From SAR86 cluster bacterium AG-422-P06 (GTDB lineage: Bacteria; Pseudomonadota; Gammaproteobacteria; Magnimaribacterales; TMED112): a stretch of 51,689 nucleotides of DNA. Positions within the stretch are counted from its first letter, which is position 1. Every line of letters begins with the position of its first letter. Positions 35,732 through 42,482 of the stretch are shown one piece after another. The stretch lies in assembly GCA_003213455.1 (NCBI GenBank), contig QCMX01000004.1, forward strand, positions 1-51,689. Reading direction: 5' to 3'. Under the pieces are notes generated by a model. It was not told the origin of the DNA, did not search any database, and saw nothing but the letters and a program-made list of their open reading frames with translations. Position numbers and translations under genes: made by a program.

Positions 35732-35989
35732 ATGAGTCTTATTAAAAACCCAAAATGTATTTATAAGAAGGTTGATGGAATTGGAGTAATTCTAGAGCCT
35801 GAAAGTGGTAAATTTATTGAATTAAATTCAACTGCTTTAGAAATTTGGAATTTGCTTGACGAAATAGGAGATGCAGCCCTTTTAGAGAAAAAATTAATTG
35901 AAAAATATGAGATGAATGAAGCTATTGGTATTGATATAGCTGAATTTTTAACAAATGCTTTGGCAGCTAATATTATTATAAAAAATTGA
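35732..35989 (+). CDS. Lasso peptide B1-type leader-binding protein (PqqD-like RRE)
   Basis: 85 residues, a stand-alone PqqD-like RiPP recognition element: three-strand start with GVILEPESGKFIELN, then ALEIWNLLDEIG and a helical C-terminal part with LIEKYEMNEA. In lasso peptide systems the B1 protein grips the leader and presents it to the B2 protease. Its stop TGA overlaps the TTG start of the next gene. The identity follows from fold pattern plus strict adjacency to B2 and C genes. Confidence 0.88.
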   Translation: MSLIKNPKCIYKKVDGIGVILEPESGKFIELNSTALEIWNLLDEIGDAALLEKKLIEKYEMNEAIGIDIAEFLTNALAANIIIKN

Positions 35990-36381
35990 AAAACCAGCAA
36001 AAGCAATTAAGCATCAAGCATCATAAATTCTTTTACCTTAAAAATATATTTTTAGTTCTAACCGAATTATGTAAATTTTCATTAAGCAGTTTCGAGCAAA
36101 TAATAAATTCTCTAAAAAAACCAATTCCCAAAAATCACAAAAAAATTGCTGTTCTTTTTATCATAAAAAAAAGCACAAGATTATTAGATATCCTTAAAAT
36201 TAAATCTTGTTTTCTACGTTCCATAATAATTTTTAAATTACTGAAGAAGTACAATCATTCACCTAAACTGCATATAGGTATTAAGAGAGTTGAAAGCCTG
36301 TATTCCCATGCCTGGATAGAAGTTAATGATCTCAGAATAGATGCAAGCCGAGGCTTTGAAATATTTACAACGATAAAATGA
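35986..36381 (+). CDS. Lasso peptide B2 leader peptidase (transglutaminase-like)
   Basis: 131 residues, slightly short for B2 proteins (usually about 140-150). The C-terminal half is the Transglut_core3 cysteine protease: Cys75 in KSCFLRSIIIFKLL, LHIGIKRVE, His108 in SHAWIEVND and an Asp (Asp119 likely) completing the triad. B2 cuts the leader from the precursor after B1 delivers it. The start is TTG at 35986, overlapping the B1 stop; the end overlaps the cyclase start by 4 bases. The N-terminal 60 residues are basic and poorly conserved. Confidence 0.88.
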   Translation: MKNQQKQLSIKHHKFFYLKNIFLVLTELCKFSLSSFEQIINSLKKPIPKNHKKIAVLFIIKKSTRLLDILKIKSCFLRSIIIFKLLKKYNHSPKLHIGIKRVESLYSHAWIEVNDLRIDASRGFEIFTTIK

Positions 36382-38126
36382 CTAAATATTGCATCAAAAT
36401 AAATAAAAAATCGTTTTATGATCCTGCTGAATGTTCAGGCACTAATGTTGAATACAAAAATGACATTGCAGTTATTGGGGATTTAAGAATTGATAATAGG
36501 GCAGAACTGCAAAAAATTGAAAAATTAAGCCATACAAAAAGTGACGTTGAAATAATTGAATTTTTATATAAAAAATATGGTGAGAATTATATAAAAAAAA
36601 TTCATGGGGCATTTGCCTTCATTTTACATGACAAGCTTAATGGTCAGCTTTCAATTGCCAGGGATCAACTAGGCCAAAAAATAATCTACTATTTAGTAAA
36701 TAATAATGAAATTTATATTTCTTCATCAATACATGGTCTTTTAGATTATTCAGCAATTGAAAAAAAAATGAATCTCAATAGAGTCATTGATTTAATTGCG
36801 CATACTCATAGCCCATCCACAGAAACATTTTTTCAAGATATAAATTATTTAGAGCCTTCGACTATCATCCAGTTTAGTAAAAACAAAACTACAAAAAAAG
36901 AATTTAAATATAAATCTGATATTCACTTAAATAAGAATTTAAAAGAGTTATTTTATGAATCTGTGACATCTATTAAAGGTGAAAACTGTGGTTCAATGTT
37001 AAGCGGGGGTTTAGATTCCTCAGCTATATCAATAGCTCTTCAAGAATTAAGCAGAGAAAAAATTCAGTCATTTTCTGTTGTCTTTCCAGAACTTAGCCCT
37101 GAATTAAAAGCTATGGCTGATGAAGAAAAATATGTAAAAGAAGTTATAAAAAAACATGGAATGCACATGAATACAGTTCCTGTGAGTAAATTTAATTTCA
37201 TAAAAAATATTAGGGAGAACACGGCTTACTTTGAAGAACCATTCATGGCTACAAATACATACATTTATGAAGAAGTATTTAAAAAAATGAATGAAAAGGG
37301 AGTAGACATAGTCTTAGATGGCACAGATGGTGATAGTGTGATTTCTCATGGGACAGAAATCTTTAGACATTACGGGGAAAAATTTGAAATACAAAAATTG
37401 CTGAAATCAAAGAAAGATTACGATAGAATTCGCGGCAAAAAACACTCAGCTTTATCAACTTTGAGGACAATATTTTCATTTGTAATAATGCCTAGACTTC
37501 CAAAATGGTTATTTATTCAGTTAAAGAGGATAAAGAATACCGATTTCTTATACATGCAGAATATTTTGCTCAACAAAGCATTTAGAAAAACTAATGAGAA
37601 GCTTTATAAAGATGCAGAAAAATTATATAACCCAAAAAAGTCATTCAACAACTTTGCTGAAAAAGCACATCATATGATGGTTTACAATTCTCATTGGGAT
37701 GATGTTTTTAATATACTTAATATAATTGCGAAAAAATATAATGTAGAAATAAGGTTTCCTTTTTTCTATCAGCCTTTAGTAAATTTTTGCTTATCTGAGC
37801 CTGTTACAAACAAAACAAAAAATGGCGTAGATAGATATAATTTTCGAGAAGCTTTAAAAGAGCAATTACCTAAAAAAATATATGAAAGAAACTCTAAGTC
37901 AAATCTCAGTCCAATTTTTACTGAAAGTTTCATGAATATTGATCCAAATTACTCTAATGAAGTTTTTTTTGAAAAAGATTCTCCAATTTATAATCTTGTA
38001 GATCAAAAAGAAATAAAAAAATTATTAGATTCCAAAGACCCAAAAAAAAATCTTGCGATAATTTATACGTTTTTTAGCTTGTATGAATGGATGAAAAAAA
38101 ATCATTTTATTGTAACTATTGATTAA
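36378..38126 (+). CDS. Lasso peptide macrolactam synthetase (asparagine synthetase-like)
   Basis: 582 residues. The N-terminal Ntn-like domain (1-190) lacks Cys2, so glutaminase activity is absent, as in lasso cyclases. The C-terminal ATP-pyrophosphatase domain has the P-loop SGGLDSS at 209-215, FEEPFMATNTYIYEEVF and DGTDGDSVISHG, and ends with the arginine/lysine-rich segment before FTESFMN. The C protein adenylates an Asp or Glu side chain in the core and joins it to the new N-terminal amine. The gene is very AT-rich (line 36541-36600 has 10 G/C in 60) with intact A9 runs, suggesting foreign origin or relaxed composition. Confidence 0.9.
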   Translation: MTKYCIKINKKSFYDPAECSGTNVEYKNDIAVIGDLRIDNRAELQKIEKLSHTKSDVEIIEFLYKKYGENYIKKIHGAFAFILHDKLNGQLSIARDQLGQKIIYYLVNNNEIYISSSIHGLLDYSAIEKKMNLNRVIDLIAHTHSPSTETFFQDINYLEPSTIIQFSKNKTTKKEFKYKSDIHLNKNLKELFYESVTSIKGENCGSMLSGGLDSSAISIALQELSREKIQSFSVVFPELSPELKAMADEEKYVKEVIKKHGMHMNTVPVSKFNFIKNIRENTAYFEEPFMATNTYIYEEVFKKMNEKGVDIVLDGTDGDSVISHGTEIFRHYGEKFEIQKLLKSKKDYDRIRGKKHSALSTLRTIFSFVIMPRLPKWLFIQLKRIKNTDFLYMQNILLNKAFRKTNEKLYKDAEKLYNPKKSFNNFAEKAHHMMVYNSHWDDVFNILNIIAKKYNVEIRFPFFYQPLVNFCLSEPVTNKTKNGVDRYNFREALKEQLPKKIYERNSKSNLSPIFTESFMNIDPNYSNEVFFEKDSPIYNLVDQKEIKKLLDSKDPKKNLAIIYTFFSLYEWMKKNHFIVTID

Positions 38127-38153
38127 TAGAACAGATGGTGATATAAATCTCGT

Positions 38154-38306
38154 ATGGAAAAGAAACATACTTGGCATAAACCAACAATTAAAGTCTTTGA
38201 TTCAGCTAAAGACTTTATACAGGGCGTAGATACCATTGGTGGTGTAAAGAAAGAGATTGGAACACCGTCAGACACAGCCTTCGCCAATTCAATAATCTCA
38301 CCATAA
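38154..38306 (+). CDS. Lasso-type RiPP precursor peptide (A)
   Basis: 50 residues, ATG to TAA, between the cyclase and the kinase (27 and 3 bases away), so its position is exactly that of a lasso precursor. The leader has Trp7-x-Lys9-Pro10-x-Ile12, the aromatic version of the YxxPxL motif bound by B1, followed by a hydrophobic Val14-Phe15. Thr27 in VDTIGG is the natural -2 threonine, giving a 22-residue core from Gly29 to Pro50. The only acidic residues in that core are Glu34 (core 6) and Asp40 (core 12), neither at the usual 7-9. The C-terminus is NSIISP, with Ser49 next to last. Confidence 0.82.
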   Translation: MEKKHTWHKPTIKVFDSAKDFIQGVDTIGGVKKEIGTPSDTAFANSIISP

Positions 38307-38309
38307 TAC

Positions 38310-39176
38310 TTGAGAGTAAAACCTTTTAATTTAATTAATGTTCATGCGAACTTTTCTCATGATTTGTTAATAAAAAAAGATGTATTATCAAATGATTCAA
38401 ACTTAGAAATAAACCTTTCAGACAACAAAAAAATTGAAAAGGATTTTGTTTCAAGCTCGAAAATTTTTTTTAATAAAACTGGCATTGCTACTTATGAAAT
38501 TTTAGATGGCAGTGTAATTAATATATATCCTTATAAAAACGTTGATACAAATACTTTACTCTACTACGGGCTTCAAATACCTTTTGGGTGCGCTTGTGTA
38601 CAAAATAAGAAGCTTGTTTTTCATGCTTCAGTTGCCGAGAAAGATGGCAAATGTTTTGCTTTTTTAGGGAGTCCAGGTGCAGGAAAATCATCTCTTTTGA
38701 TTGAATTAATAGAATCTGGATGGAATTTTATAACAGAAGATATATGTGTCCTTGATGACGACTATAATCTTAATTTTATTAGCTTATTTCCATATATAAA
38801 GCTTTCAAATGAAGTTGCTACAAAGCATACAAATAAATTGATTTTAACTGGTATAAAAACAGATAGATTAGGCAGACAAACTTATCAGATAGATTTATCA
38901 AATGTTTCGGCAGGAGGCATTCTTGAATCTATCTTTATCCTCGATTGGAGCCAAGAAAAAAATTTATATCAACCTGCTGAATCAACAAAACTTAGACTTT
39001 TGCTAAATTATCTTGTGCCTTCTTTCCAAGCAAAAGCTAATAATATTCATATTGATTCCTATAAAAAAATACTTAAGCTTATCGATTCACTACCAATATT
39101 CGTGCTAGAAAGACCAAGATCTCTTGGCAAAAAAGTTATTCAAACAACAATCGATAGATTAAATTTTCTTATTTAG
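38310..39176 (+). CDS. HPr-kinase-like tailoring kinase
   Basis: 288 residues, TTG start three bases after the precursor stop. A poorly conserved N-terminal half is followed by the HPrK C-terminal fold: FHASVAEKDGKCFAFLG with conserved His105, P-loop GSPGAGKSS (120-128) and ITEDICVLDDD. No sugar phosphotransferase genes are near, so HPr is an unlikely substrate. In paeninodin-type lasso clusters such kinases phosphorylate the C-terminal Ser of the precursor; here Ser49 or Ser46 would be the candidate. The stop overlaps the convergent permease stop by 4 bases. Confidence 0.85.
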   Translation: MRVKPFNLINVHANFSHDLLIKKDVLSNDSNLEINLSDNKKIEKDFVSSSKIFFNKTGIATYEILDGSVINIYPYKNVDTNTLLYYGLQIPFGCACVQNKKLVFHASVAEKDGKCFAFLGSPGAGKSSLLIELIESGWNFITEDICVLDDDYNLNFISLFPYIKLSNEVATKHTNKLILTGIKTDRLGRQTYQIDLSNVSAGGILESIFILDWSQEKNLYQPAESTKLRLLLNYLVPSFQAKANNIHIDSYKKILKLIDSLPIFVLERPRSLGKKVIQTTIDRLNFLI

Positions 39177-39991
39177 TAATGTGATAATGTTCCTTTTTTT
39201 CTTGAGGTATCTATTGCTCTCGAAATAGATGAGTAACCCAAGACAAGATAGAAGATAGCTAAAAATAATAATTTTAAAGCAGAGAAATAAGAACTATTGA
39301 TATTACTTTCCTCGACTAATTCGTTTCTAACTATATCTAATGTATGAGTAAGAGGCATCAATTCAGAAAGATATATAAAGATTTGAGGTAAAACATCATT
39401 TGGGTAAATAGCACCTGAAATAATTAAGGGCCCTCCCACAAAGACTAAACTAAGATAGTCTCCCTTTTTATAAATGAGGATAATTGATAGACCTATCATT
39501 GATATGCCAATAAATGCTACCAGCGTAATACAACATACTGCTAGTAGTGTAATGATGTCTCGAATTGAAAGAATCTGATCACTTAGAGCCCATGAAACTA
39601 TAAAAATCAATAAGAGCCTTAGAAATGACTTTACAAATGTATAGAATACTGAAGATATAGATAAGAAAATAAATCTATTTTTTGAAACGAATAATTCTTC
39701 AATATATCCAAAGCTTTGAGCTTCCCTCAAATTATTACTGATAGCTGCGTAAGACTGCCCCATTAGATTAACTATTGAAAAACCTGTGATAGAAAAGAGA
39801 AAGAATTCTCCTTTAAACCTGCTGTAAAAAGAGTCCTCAGAAAAATTAAATGACTTGGATAAGAAAAATAAAAAAAATACTAATAAAAAGGCAAAAACTA
39901 GTTCAGTAAAAAAACTTAGCTTATATGAAAATTGAAAGAGGAAATCTTTTTTGAATGATGCCCTTAGAATGTTTAAATAACTAGCCAGCAT
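39173..39991 (-). CDS. ABC-2 type transporter permease
   Basis: 272 residues with six hydrophobic segments (roughly 25-48, 66-80, 108-137, 140-172, 180-200, 240-260), the layout of an ABC-2 export permease. The stretch YIEELFVSKNRFIFL lies on the cytoplasmic side, as in drug and polysaccharide exporters. It overlaps its ATPase by 11 bases. Pointing into the RiPP operon, it is a candidate peptide exporter, although lasso exporters are usually single fused polypeptides. Confidence 0.82.
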   Translation of the reverse strand: MLASYLNILRASFKKDFLFQFSYKLSFFTELVFAFLLVFFLFFLSKSFNFSEDSFYSRFKGEFFLFSITGFSIVNLMGQSYAAISNNLREAQSFGYIEELFVSKNRFIFLSISSVFYTFVKSFLRLLLIFIVSWALSDQILSIRDIITLLAVCCITLVAFIGISMIGLSIILIYKKGDYLSLVFVGGPLIISGAIYPNDVLPQIFIYLSELMPLTHTLDIVRNELVEESNINSSYFSALKLLFLAIFYLVLGYSSISRAIDTSRKKGTLSHY

Positions 39992-40607
39992 TGAGTGATT
40001 CCATATGTAATATTGAGTCAGAAGATTGCTTTAAGAAGTTTATGTCATGCGAACTAATTAATACATTTTTTAAGCTATTATTTACAATCTCCTCCTGCAA
40101 AATTTTTACAATATTTTTAATTGATACCTCATCAATTGAAACAAAGGTTTCATCTAATATCAAAATATCAGGTTTATAAATTAGAGCACGAAGTATTGAT
40201 AATTTCTGAATCTCTCCTGTTGATAAGTTAGATACATTTCTGTCTAGCAAAGCAGATAAGCCTAGAATATTTGCTATTTGCTTTAATCTTTTATTAAAAA
40301 TAAATTTTCTGCCAGTTCTTGCGGTAAAGAAATAATCTAAATTTTCATAAGCTGTAATTCTATTAATAAAGGCCCTTTGATTACTGGCAACATAGCACAC
40401 ATTTGATTTGACAGGATCAAAAGCGACTGAGCCAGAATCTTGAGCTATTAACCCTGCTATTATTTTGAATAATGTTGTCTTGCCCGACCCATTTGAACCA
40501 TAGAAGGCATAAATTTTTTTGTCCTGCAATTCGAGACTAATATTAGTTAATACTTTTTTTGATGGCTTGTTTGAAAATGATTTATATATATTATTTAAGA
40601 AGATCAT
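39981..40607 (-). CDS. ABC transporter ATPase
   Basis: 208 residues from the ATG at 40607. A start further upstream (40700) would run across xthA and adds a sequence with no match to the ABC fold, so I reject it. Motifs: Walker A GSNGSGKTT (37-45), Q-loop VASNQRAF, signature LSTGEIQKL, Walker B DILILDETFVSIDE and switch His in SSHDINFL. It forms an exporter with the downstream permease. Its start codon is only 4 bases from the divergent xthA start. Confidence 0.9.
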   Translation of the reverse strand: MIFLNNIYKSFSNKPSKKVLTNISLELQDKKIYAFYGSNGSGKTTLFKIIAGLIAQDSGSVAFDPVKSNVCYVASNQRAFINRITAYENLDYFFTARTGRKFIFNKRLKQIANILGLSALLDRNVSNLSTGEIQKLSILRALIYKPDILILDETFVSIDEVSIKNIVKILQEEIVNNSLKNVLISSHDINFLKQSSDSILHMESLNAG

Positions 40608-40611
40608 AATT

Positions 40612-41412
40612 ATGTTAGTTATCACTTTTAATGTTAATGGAATCAGGGCAAGAATCCACCAATTAGATGCTTTAATCCAAAAATATAGTCCTGATATCAT
40701 CTGTTTACAAGAGATTAAAGTTTCTGATGAGGATTTTCCTTATACAACCATAGAGGAATTAGGCTATAGAGTTTTTAACTATGGTCAAAAAGGTTTTCAC
40801 GGTGTTGCAATTTTATGCAAAGTAGAGCCACTTAATGTTGTCAGGGGCCTAGATGGTGGTAAAGATGAAGAACAAAAAAGATATATTCAATGTGATTTTA
40901 AATCTAAAATTGGCACAATTTCTATATGTAACTCTTATTTCCCACAAGGGGAGAACAGGAAACATGAATTAAAGTTTCCATATAAAGAGCGCTACTACAA
41001 AAGAATTACTGAGCACCTTAAAAAAATTAAGAATAATTATATTGTGACTGGTGATTTCAATATAGCGCCTCTAGCAGTAGATAGGGCAATCGGTCTAGAT
41101 GCTGAAAAAAGATGGTTAAGAGAAGGTCATACAGCTTTTTTATCTGAAGAAATTGAATGGTTTTCAAATCTGACTGCTATTGGTCTTGAAGATATTTGGC
41201 GAAAAAATAATCCTAATGAAAATATCTCAACTTGGTTTGACTATCGATCTAGGGGTTTTGAAAGAGAACCGAAGAGAGGTTTAAGAATTGACTTTTTCCT
41301 CACAAATTTAGGTTTAAGAGATACTTATGTTGACTCAAAAATTGATCATGAAATTAGAGCAATGGATAAACCCTCTGATCATTGCCCTGTAACTCTTAAA
41401 TTAAATATTTGA
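40612..41412 (+). CDS. xthA: Exodeoxyribonuclease III
   Basis: 266 residues from ATG 40612, which gives MLVITFNVNGIRAR as in E. coli XthA. The longer frame from 40519 is antisense to the ABC ATPase and is rejected. Motifs: LQEIKVSDEDFP with the metal Glu, YGQKGFHGVAIL, GDFNIAPLAVD, and SDHCPV with the catalytic Asp-His. It is the AP endonuclease and 3'-5' exonuclease of base excision repair. A housekeeping gene lodged between RiPP genes is odd and may mark one edge of an inserted locus. Confidence 0.95.
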   Translation: MLVITFNVNGIRARIHQLDALIQKYSPDIICLQEIKVSDEDFPYTTIEELGYRVFNYGQKGFHGVAILCKVEPLNVVRGLDGGKDEEQKRYIQCDFKSKIGTISICNSYFPQGENRKHELKFPYKERYYKRITEHLKKIKNNYIVTGDFNIAPLAVDRAIGLDAEKRWLREGHTAFLSEEIEWFSNLTAIGLEDIWRKNNPNENISTWFDYRSRGFEREPKRGLRIDFFLTNLGLRDTYVDSKIDHEIRAMDKPSDHCPVTLKLNI

Positions 41413-42482
41413 TGAGACTGAATCTACTCAAAACAATCTTTGATAACTCTATAACCTCAAGCTCTTTGTCGAACAATGAGTTAGAAGGTCTTATGAAGAC
41501 CTGTGAAAAACATAGGATCAAACAAATATTCATCGATCATATGGATATGGTTAAGGATCATAGAGCAAATTATAGAGAATATGCAAAAAAATATACTCGT
41601 TATTCATTAACGAGAGACTTAAACATCCTGAGTGAGATAGACAAGCTTGCCCTACTTCTGGAAAGCAGAAAAATTAACTTTGTTTTCTTAAAAGGTGCAG
41701 CATTTAAAAAAGCATTATATAAAAAATCAACTTTTAGAGATTGTAGAGACATTGACGTATTAGTAAGTACTAAAGATGTTAAACCAACGCTAGAAACTCT
41801 ATTTGAAAATGGTTACAAGTATGTCGTGGCTCAAGAAAGTCGAAATACTCAAATTGATTATGAGAATAGTCATCAAGCTCCTGTTTTATTTTCTCCTAAC
41901 GGGCAATATGTTGAGATACATTACAGGTTAACTATGGAAAATAAGAAATGTCTCATTTCTGATGATATGCTTCAGCAACAAAAAAATTATATTGGACCTA
42001 ATAGCCTGAATCTAATTCATATTGCCTATCATGCATTGATAATTAATAAGCTTAATAATGGGCTGATGTCTTTAATAGATATTAATTATTTGCTGAATGG
42101 TACTTCAAAAAATGAGGTCATTCATGCTGCAGAAAAATATAATTTGAGCGGGAAGATCAAACATATGATAGAGCTTTATGAATTTAACTTATTTAACAAG
42201 CAATTTAATCATAATAAAACAGAAATATTATTAATATCAAATGAACTTATACATGCTGGTGAAGTATTAGTTGGTTTTAAAGCACACTCAAGAAGCTTAA
42301 ATATTTTTAAGAAAAAATATTTGGGCAAGGAAGGGGGCAAGTTAGATTCTTTAAGAATAAATATTTCATTTATAAGATATATCTTTAATAAATTATTTTT
42401 TCACATTGTGTCTGTAATAAAAAATCCAAATTTATGGAGTAAAAGAAATAGGCTAAAAAAATATTTAAAGAAAGAAGATTAG
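41412..42482 (+). CDS. Nucleotidyltransferase family 5 protein, putative RiPP tailoring enzyme
   Basis: 356 residues from the ATG at 41412; a TTG one codon earlier is also possible. Core motif VFLKGAAFKKALY then RDCRDIDVLVSTKDV carries the metal-binding acidic pair of NTP_transf_5 (PF14907); HQAPVLFSPNGQYVEIHYRL follows. Such genes recur beside lasso clusters that also encode HPr-like kinases, so it probably belongs with the RiPP locus despite xthA lying between. It shares TGATG with xthA and converges on DUF962 with a 4-base overlap. Its substrate is unknown. Confidence 0.8.
   Translation: MRLNLLKTIFDNSITSSSLSNNELEGLMKTCEKHRIKQIFIDHMDMVKDHRANYREYAKKYTRYSLTRDLNILSEIDKLALLLESRKINFVFLKGAAFKKALYKKSTFRDCRDIDVLVSTKDVKPTLETLFENGYKYVVAQESRNTQIDYENSHQAPVLFSPNGQYVEIHYRLTMENKKCLISDDMLQQQKNYIGPNSLNLIHIAYHALIINKLNNGLMSLIDINYLLNGTSKNEVIHAAEKYNLSGKIKHMIELYEFNLFNKQFNHNKTEILLISNELIHAGEVLVGFKAHSRSLNIFKKKYLGKEGGKLDSLRINISFIRYIFNKLFFHIVSVIKNPNLWSKRNRLKKYLKKED

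What the first reader, a model, noticed from the sequence alone, without database searches (positions are those of the whole stretch)
38154..38306. Precursor core has no acidic residue at the normal lasso ring positions
With Thr27 as the -2 residue, the core begins at Gly29, and its only acids are Glu34 (position 6) and Asp40 (position 12). Known lasso rings use Asp or Glu at 7, 8 or 9. Either cleavage is shifted upstream (start at Ile28, Thr27 or Asp26 puts Glu34 at 7, 8 or 9), or the ring has a new size, or the product is not a classical lasso. The tail motif EIGTPSD followed by NSIISP recalls orphan lasso-leader peptides of unknown structure.
Basis: partly seen in the sequence, partly recalled or inferred. 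Interest (0 to 1): 0.82.

Follow-up and report, generated by a model that had tools for sequence, protein, structure and literature searches.

The report
Lasso-type precursor with displaced ring acid
This gene encodes the raw peptide for a lasso-type natural product in which the residue that normally closes the ring has moved far downstream and is paired with a conserved lysine, marking an unlabelled subclass, found in several bacterial phyla, that may close its ring in a new way.

Summary
The ORF at 38154-38306 is real. It lies in a complete lasso-type cluster (B1, B2, cyclase C, precursor A, HPrK-like kinase; ABC transporter and NTP_transf_5 nearby). Thr27 is not the -2 residue. By the [Y/W](-17) register Ile22 is -2 and the core starts at Gly24, so the acids fall at 3, 11 and 17. 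"No acid at 7-9" therefore stands; the numbering does not. Eleven of ~203 genomes of the order carry the cluster. In eight aligned precursors Asp40 is invariant; Glu34, Thr27 and Gly29 are not. The window copy is not an isolated mutant: it belongs to a class with motif KxxGxxD (KxxGxxxD here), Asp mostly at core 10-17, in Acidobacteriota, Rokubacteria, Chloroflexota, Desulfocapsa and this order. Outside the class 56 of 60 precursors have an acid at 7-9. Cyclases of ordinary precursors form one strongly supported side of the tree; those of this class lie on the other. All 20 motif members keep Thr or Ile at -2. Preferred reading (inference): Asp40 is the acceptor and the Lys33 side chain replaces the N-terminal amine (29-atom ring; 26 in most relatives). 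Main rival: a shifted cut keeping a 7-9-residue ring. Mass spectrometry would decide.

The parts
35732..35989 (+). B1: PqqD-like RRE protein that binds the leader
   Evidence: Pfam PqqD 2.7e-12, above its cut-off; lasso_PqqD_Bac 7e-6, below its curated cut-off
35986..36381 (+). B2: leader peptidase (Transglut_core3)
   Evidence: NF033537 lasso_biosyn_B2 41.4 bits, cut-off 33; catalytic Cys and His columns kept
36378..38126 (+). C: lasso-type macrolactam cyclase (asparagine-synthetase fold)
   Evidence: Pfam Asn_synthase 3.5e-38; lass_lactam_cya 257.6 bits, below its 525-bit cut-off; SGGLDSS loop and K507 conserved
38154..38306 (+). A: precursor peptide (50 aa)
   Evidence: homologues in 11 genomes of the order
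38154..38222 (+). Predicted leader, residues 1-23, with Trp7(-17), Pro10(-14), Ile12(-12), Ile22(-2)
   Evidence: [Y/W]xxPx[L/I] register; Ile(-2) cut proven for BsfA (PMC10368454)
38223..38303 (+). Predicted core GVDTIGGVKKEIGTPSDTAFANSIISP, residues 24-50
   Evidence: register validated on 60 precursors
38250..38273 (+). KEIGTPSD, Lys33-Asp40: putative ring segment (motif KxxGxxxD)
   Evidence: ring partner assignment is inference
38298..38300 (+). Ser49 codon, candidate phosphorylation site
   Evidence: Ser/Thr in the last three residues in 11 of 11 order precursors, 5.4 expected, p = 0.0004
38310..39176 (+). HPrK-like peptide kinase (PadeK/BsfK type)
   Evidence: HprK_rel_A 4.8e-10, below its cut-off; P-loop residues G125, K126, S127, with H105 and D144, invariant
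39173..40700 (-). ABC exporter: permease 39173-39991 and ATPase 39981-40700
   Evidence: homologues upstream of B1 in relatives
41409..42482 (+). NTP_transf_5 nucleotidyltransferase-like protein (PsmN-like)
   Evidence: Pfam PF14907 2.7e-24; homologues in relatives' clusters

Best explanation
The ORF is the precursor of a lasso-type cluster that belongs to a distinct subclass, marked by KxxGxxD. B1 binds the leader at Trp7/Pro10/Ile12 and B2 cuts after Gln23, with Ile22 at -2. The kinase probably phosphorylates Ser49 near the C terminus. The cyclase activates Asp40, the conserved acid. Because the N-terminal amine (Gly24) lies 16 residues away, the side-chain amine of the conserved Lys33 attacks instead. 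This makes a Lys33-Asp40 amide ring of 29 atoms (26 in relatives with Lys six before Asp; ordinary 8- and 9-residue lasso rings have 25 and 28) and leaves residues 24-32 as a free N-terminal arm. Shown by sequence: the cluster, the register, the displacement, the conserved Lys, Gly and Asp, and the separate cyclase lineage. Inferred: the cut site in this peptide, the Lys-Asp bond, threading and phosphorylation.
For: Register: Ile(-2) cleavage by BsfB2 at Tyr(-17) (PMC10368454); outside the class 56 of 60 precursors have D/E at 7-9 against 15.2 in shuffles. All 20 motif members keep T (15) or I (5) at -2; L036 also has T. Motif: KxxG(2-3 residues)D in 16 of 21 precursors lacking an acid at 7-9, and in 4 of 60 others; those 4 (L022, L023, L024, L212) are the same class with a coincidental acid. 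KxxGxxD in 13 of 20 non-redundant displaced or class cores against 0.30 in shuffles, maximum 3. At that position the class has Lys and never Arg, which fits a chemical role better than a charge role. Members from the kinase-profile searches made after the motif was seen (L190, L209-L213, L215-L217, L233, L236) carry it, while L214 (ordinary D9 precursors) has a cyclase on the ordinary side. Careful tree: ordinary cyclases form one side of a 98/99 branch and the class lies on the other; holding the order together with the outside class as one clade raises lnL by 31.6, p-AU 0.894. Lys-to-Asp ring size stays at 26-29 atoms while N-terminus-to-Asp would run from 31 to over 50. Cys pairs partly within the N-terminal extension (L213, L215 QCxPPxC; L217 Cys5/Cys29; L236 Cys4/Cys31) suggest the extension stays in the product.
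Against: No product is known. No lasso cyclase is known to use a Lys side chain; the papers searched give none. The window deviates by one residue (KxxGxxxD), and K32 or K33 could serve. The motif also fits Lys as a new core residue 1 after a shifted cut. Short-type relatives in the same order lack the Lys and have Asp9 at normal spacing, although their cyclases sit on the same side of the tree. The extension is no better conserved than the leader, so its conservation does not prove that it stays. Sequences are related, so counts are not independent events, and the order's cyclases are long branches.
Confidence: 0.4

Rival explanations
1. Shifted cut: the leader is extended by 8-10 residues and B2 (or a second protease) cuts before K32, K33 or E34, so the alpha-amine closes an ordinary 7-, 8- or 9-residue ring on Asp40.
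For: Asp40 is the invariant acid. Short-type relatives carry [N/D]xxxxGxxD with Asp exactly at 9, and long-type members of the order show D-x-K-x-x-G-x-x-D. Lys as core 1 would give a 7-residue ring in most members. The aromatic-to-cut distance is not universal: paeninodin-type leaders have Trp at -15 (PMC13381572).
Against: T/I at the canonical -2 is kept in all 20 motif members. No residue is conserved just before the new start. An 8-residue ring would need an N-terminal Pro in L023, L025, L026, L212, L213 and L215 (sequences). Cys in the extension suggests it is kept.
Confidence: 0.3
2. Giant head-to-side-chain ring: the cut is at Gly24 and the Gly24 amine closes on Asp40 (17-residue ring), with 10-17-residue rings in most relatives.
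For: Canonical cut features and the conserved Asp.
Against: Ring size would vary from 31 to over 50 atoms between relatives, whereas altering lasso ring size by one residue already reduces production (review PMC13352647). It gives no role to the invariant Lys.
Confidence: 0.1
3. No macrolactam: the mature product is a linear or otherwise modified phosphopeptide, as in the LPP family.
For: LPP clusters share the RRE, HPrK-like kinase and NTP transferase and give linear polyphosphorylated peptides (PMC13381572).
Against: LPPs lack the cyclase; here C and B2 are adjacent with conserved motifs, and the cyclase lineage tracks the precursor type.
Confidence: 0.1
4. Glu34 closes the ring after a cut at Asp26, Thr27 or Ile28.
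For: Only arithmetic: Glu34 would be 9, 8 or 7.
Against: Glu34, Thr27, Ile28 and Asp26 are not conserved in the aligned homologues; Ile22, not Thr27, fits the -2 register.
Confidence: 0.04
5. Decayed cluster: the precursor has lost its ring acid and makes no product.
For: The cluster is patchy (11 of ~203 genomes).
Against: All five core genes are intact and in order; the displacement is shared by a whole class with a conserved motif.
Confidence: 0.04

Closest known systems
BsfA/Bsf cluster (Bradymonas sediminis, phosphorylated lasso system, PMC10368454)
   Same: B1, B2, C and HPrK-like kinase; Ile at -2 and Gly at core 1 with the aromatic at -17
   Different: BsfA has Asp8 as ring acid and is phosphorylated on Ser3; here there is no acid at 7-9, and Asp17 is paired with a Lys
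Paeninodin / pseudomycoidin-type lasso clusters
   Same: WxxP leader, kinase, and an NTP transferase nearby; Ser near the C terminus
   Different: Paeninodin-type leaders have Trp at -15 (PMC13381572); in those the conserved Ser is the last residue, here Ser49 is penultimate; the ring acid is displaced here
Metanodin (Asn1 lasso peptide, PMC12670498)
   Same: From an uncultivated gammaproteobacterium; several short-type relatives of this order also have Asn as predicted core 1 with Asp9
   Different: Metanodin has a normal ring built on the N-terminal amine
LPP (linear polyphosphorylated peptides, PMC13381572)
   Same: Shared RRE, kinase and NTP transferase logic
   Different: LPP clusters lack the cyclase and use a signal-peptidase-like enzyme
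Graspetides (general knowledge)
   Same: Side-chain-to-side-chain Lys/Asp-type lactams, the chemistry proposed here
   Different: Graspetides use ATP-grasp ligases; here the enzyme is an asparagine-synthetase-type lasso cyclase

Membership tests
Lasso peptide (classical) | RRE-binding motif [Y/W]xxPx[L/I/V] in the leader | tested here: met
   W7-H-K-P10-T-I12; W and P invariant in relatives
Lasso peptide (classical) | Thr at -2 | tested here: not met
   Ile22 at -2; Ile(-2) is a proven natural variant in BsfA
Lasso peptide (classical) | B1/RRE and B2 peptidase genes | tested here: met
   PqqD and lasso_biosyn_B2 above their cut-offs
Lasso peptide (classical) | Asn-synthetase-type cyclase C | tested here: met
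   Asn_synthase 3.5e-38; conserved motifs; NCBIfam lasso cyclase model hit but below its cut-off
Lasso peptide (classical) | Asp/Glu at core 7, 8 or 9 | tested here: not met
   Acids at 3, 11, 17 from Gly24, or 6 and 12 from Gly29
Lasso peptide (classical) | Isopeptide ring with threaded tail | not testable with these tools
   needs MS/MS or NMR of the product
Paeninodin/pseudomycoidin-type phosphorylated lasso peptides | HPrK-like kinase gene next to A | tested here: met
   38310-39176, HprK_rel_A 4.8e-10
Paeninodin/pseudomycoidin-type phosphorylated lasso peptides | C-terminal Ser | tested here: inconclusive
   Ser49 is penultimate; Ser/Thr in the last three residues in 11 of 11 order precursors
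KxxGxxD subclass (proposed here) | Lys-x-x-Gly-x-x-(x)-Asp in the core, no acid acting at 7-9, T/I at -2 | tested here: met
   KEIGTPSD, residues 33-40, with the extra residue seen also in L233
KxxGxxD subclass (proposed here) | Cyclase on the class side of the tree | tested here: met
   (ordinary cyclases split off at 98/99); AU test not rejected
LPP | No macrolactam cyclase; SpI-like peptidase instead of B2 | tested here: not met
   C and B2 are present
Graspetide | ATP-grasp ligase | not tested
   none among the eight cluster proteins scanned; the rest of the window was not scanned for it

The most novel reading that the evidence does not exclude
A lasso-cyclase lineage spread over several phyla makes side-chain-to-side-chain rings (Lys epsilon-amine to Asp, 26-29 atoms) instead of head-to-side-chain rings, giving lariats with a free N-terminal arm; in this order some members later returned to normal Asp9 spacing by losing the Lys and shortening the core.
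Probability: 0.38. Interest if true: 0.88.

Novelty: new variant of a known kind. Interest (0 to 1): 0.72.

Why it matters
The rule that a lasso ring runs from core residue 1 to an acid at 7-9 is used to recognise these peptides. Here is a coherent set of complete clusters in several phyla that breaks it in one consistent way, with a conserved Lys-Asp pair and a separate cyclase lineage. If Lys is the nucleophile, lasso cyclases can close rings away from the N terminus, which would open N-terminally extended lariats and change how precursors are predicted. If instead the cut is shifted, it shows that leader length is far more flexible than assumed. Either result is reachable with one expression experiment.

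Tried and rejected
Thr27 as -2 and Glu34 as acceptor: rejected by homologues and by the register. Isolated mutant or decay: rejected, since the displacement is shared by a class. Plain LPP-type linear peptide: lowered, because C and B2 are present. Searches that gave little: Pfam and NCBIfam on the precursor (no hit); single-protein scan of genome contigs with C (nothing); plasmid search (nothing); class-wide precursor search (only two weak hits outside the order); PDB search (only distant Asn synthetases and HPr kinases; no solved lasso cyclase, also stated in PMC13352647). Columns of C that differ between the two cyclase groups (463, 465 next to conserved R459/P461) are suggestive but were not mapped on a structure. 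No structure prediction was run, because a monomer model cannot show which amine attacks. L069, L170, L199 and L201 have an acid at 10 without the KxxGxxD motif; a one-residue shift is the simpler reading and they were not put in the class. Rubrobacter L036 (K27-D33) was counted with the class because of its cyclase position, but it lacks the Gly at the usual place.

Full report
Setting. Positions 35732-39176 carry, on the + strand, B1 (PqqD), B2 (Transglut_core3, above the NCBIfam lasso B2 cut-off), C (Asn_synthase), the 50-residue ORF in question, and an HPrK-like kinase; an ABC exporter follows on the minus strand, and an NTP_transf_5 gene lies at 41409-42482. Catalytic motifs of C and the Cys/His columns of B2 are kept.

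Check of the observation. The ORF and its acids are as described, but the cut site is not. B1-type RREs recognise Y/WxxPxL, and in BsfA this motif is at -17, -14 and -12, with a natural Ile at -2 and cleavage before Gly1 proven in vitro (PMC10368454). The window leader WHKPTIKVFDSAKDFIQ|G matches BsfA YKKPQLTYHSTLAAIIR|G position by position. So Ile22 is -2 and the predicted core is GVDTIGGVKKEIGTPSDTAFANSIISP, with acids at 3, 11 and 17. The headline holds under this register as well. Paeninodin-type leaders have the Trp at -15 (PMC13381572), so the distance is not universal. Within the data gathered here it works: of 60 precursors outside the class described below, 56 have D/E at 7-9 (55 at 8-9), against 15.2 (10.5) in shuffled cores.

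Relatives in the same order. A profile search with the precursor and an independent one with the kinase found the same 11 genomes among about 203. Alignment of eight precursors leaves W7, P10, G36 and D40 invariant; E34, D26, T27, I28 and G29 vary. Five relatives (L028, L029, L136, L137, L138) have Asp exactly at 9 and Asn or Asp at core 1. Six (the window, L022-L026) have the conserved Asp at 12-17. The window is therefore not an isolated mutant.

A wider class. Scanning other phyla with the cyclase alignment and the kinase profile gave many complete clusters whose precursors follow the ordinary rule, and a set that does not. The latter share K-x-x-G-x-x-D: Rokubacteria (D10), Chloroflexota (D11), Acidobacteriota (D11, D14, D16) and this order (D12, D14, D15), with the spaced form KxxGxxxD in the window (D17) and in a second cluster of a Desulfocapsa genome (L233, D23). 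Of 81 precursors, 21 lack an acid at 7-9; 16 of these have the motif (2 or 3 residues between Gly and Asp), against 4 of 60 others, and those 4 are the same class with a chance acid. In a set of 20 non-redundant cores 13 have KxxGxxD against 0.30 in shuffles (maximum 3). The class has Lys and never Arg at that place. Trp rather than Tyr at -17 marks it as well (18 of 21 against 5 of 60). Every motif member keeps Thr or Ile at -2. The motif was noticed on the first members; those were found with the kinase profile, independent of the precursor, and are a fair test of it.

Cyclase lineage. In the careful tree of 43 cyclases those with ordinary precursors form one side of a branch with support 98/99; all cyclases of the class, and the order's short-type ones, lie on the other side. 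In the first, quick tree the order stood apart; holding it with the outside class as one clade gave a higher likelihood (31.6 units, p-AU 0.894). The order's rows are long branches of odd composition, so the exact branching inside is unsure. Precursor type and cyclase lineage go together, except that the short type lies within the class side; a return to ordinary spacing is the simplest account.

Mechanism. Asp40 is the best candidate acceptor. For the amine there are three choices. The Gly24 amine would need a 17-residue ring here and 10-17 (more in L233) in relatives. A shifted cut would give an ordinary ring but has no conserved residue before the new start, would demand N-terminal Pro in several members for an 8-residue ring, and leaves the kept T/I(-2) unexplained. 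The Lys side chain gives a nearly constant ring of 26 atoms (29 in the window), close to the 25 and 28 atoms of known 8- and 9-residue rings (the 28-atom figure is also in PMC13352647), and explains why Lys is invariant. Cysteines in the N-terminal extension of L213/L215, L217 and L236 suggest that the extension belongs to the product. I therefore prefer the Lys-Asp ring at 0.4 and the shifted cut at 0.3. The bond, the threading and the phosphorylation (Ser49) are inferred.

Comparison with the known. By its genes the system works like a paeninodin/Bsf-type phosphorylated lasso cluster. As a classical lasso peptide it fails a defining feature (acid at 7-9), and Thr(-2) is replaced by Ile, which is a known variant. 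It should be filed as a new variant next to lasso peptides, not as a classical member. No paper found in the open library describes a lasso cyclase with a Lys nucleophile or this motif; subscription journals are mostly not held, so this is not proof of novelty.

Limits. Counts are of related sequences. The class was defined on the data on which the first statistics were made. The window itself has one extra residue between Gly and Asp, and Lys32 or Lys33 could serve.

Noticed in passing
L028, L029, L136, L137, L138 (precursors): Short-type relatives of the same order have Asn or Asp as predicted core residue 1 with Asp9, resembling the Asn1 lasso peptide metanodin.
   Followed up: partly
L213:2618-2842 and L215:2493-2753 (minus strand): Class members with a conserved QCxPPxCKPK stretch between the -2 Thr and the ring motif; a disulfide in the N-terminal arm is possible.
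   Followed up: partly
L036:6387-6590: Rubrobacter precursor with no acid at 7-9, K27...D33 and Cys20/Cys35 around it; its cyclase falls outside the ordinary group.
   Followed up: partly
L172:718-975 and 1069-1254: Two near-identical tandem lasso-type precursors (AVDMxGMADGGGG...) in one acidobacterial cluster.
   Followed up: no
window 39173-40700: The ABC exporter genes lie downstream on the minus strand here, whereas several relatives have them upstream of B1 on the same strand.
   Followed up: no
L069, L170, L199, L201: Precursors with the first ring-type acid at 10 and no KxxGxxD motif; probably a one-residue shift of the cut.
   Followed up: partly
window 41409-42482: NTP_transf_5 protein of the PsmN/LppN kind, one gene away from the exporter; possible sugar or nucleotide transfer onto the phosphorylated Ser.
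   Followed up: no
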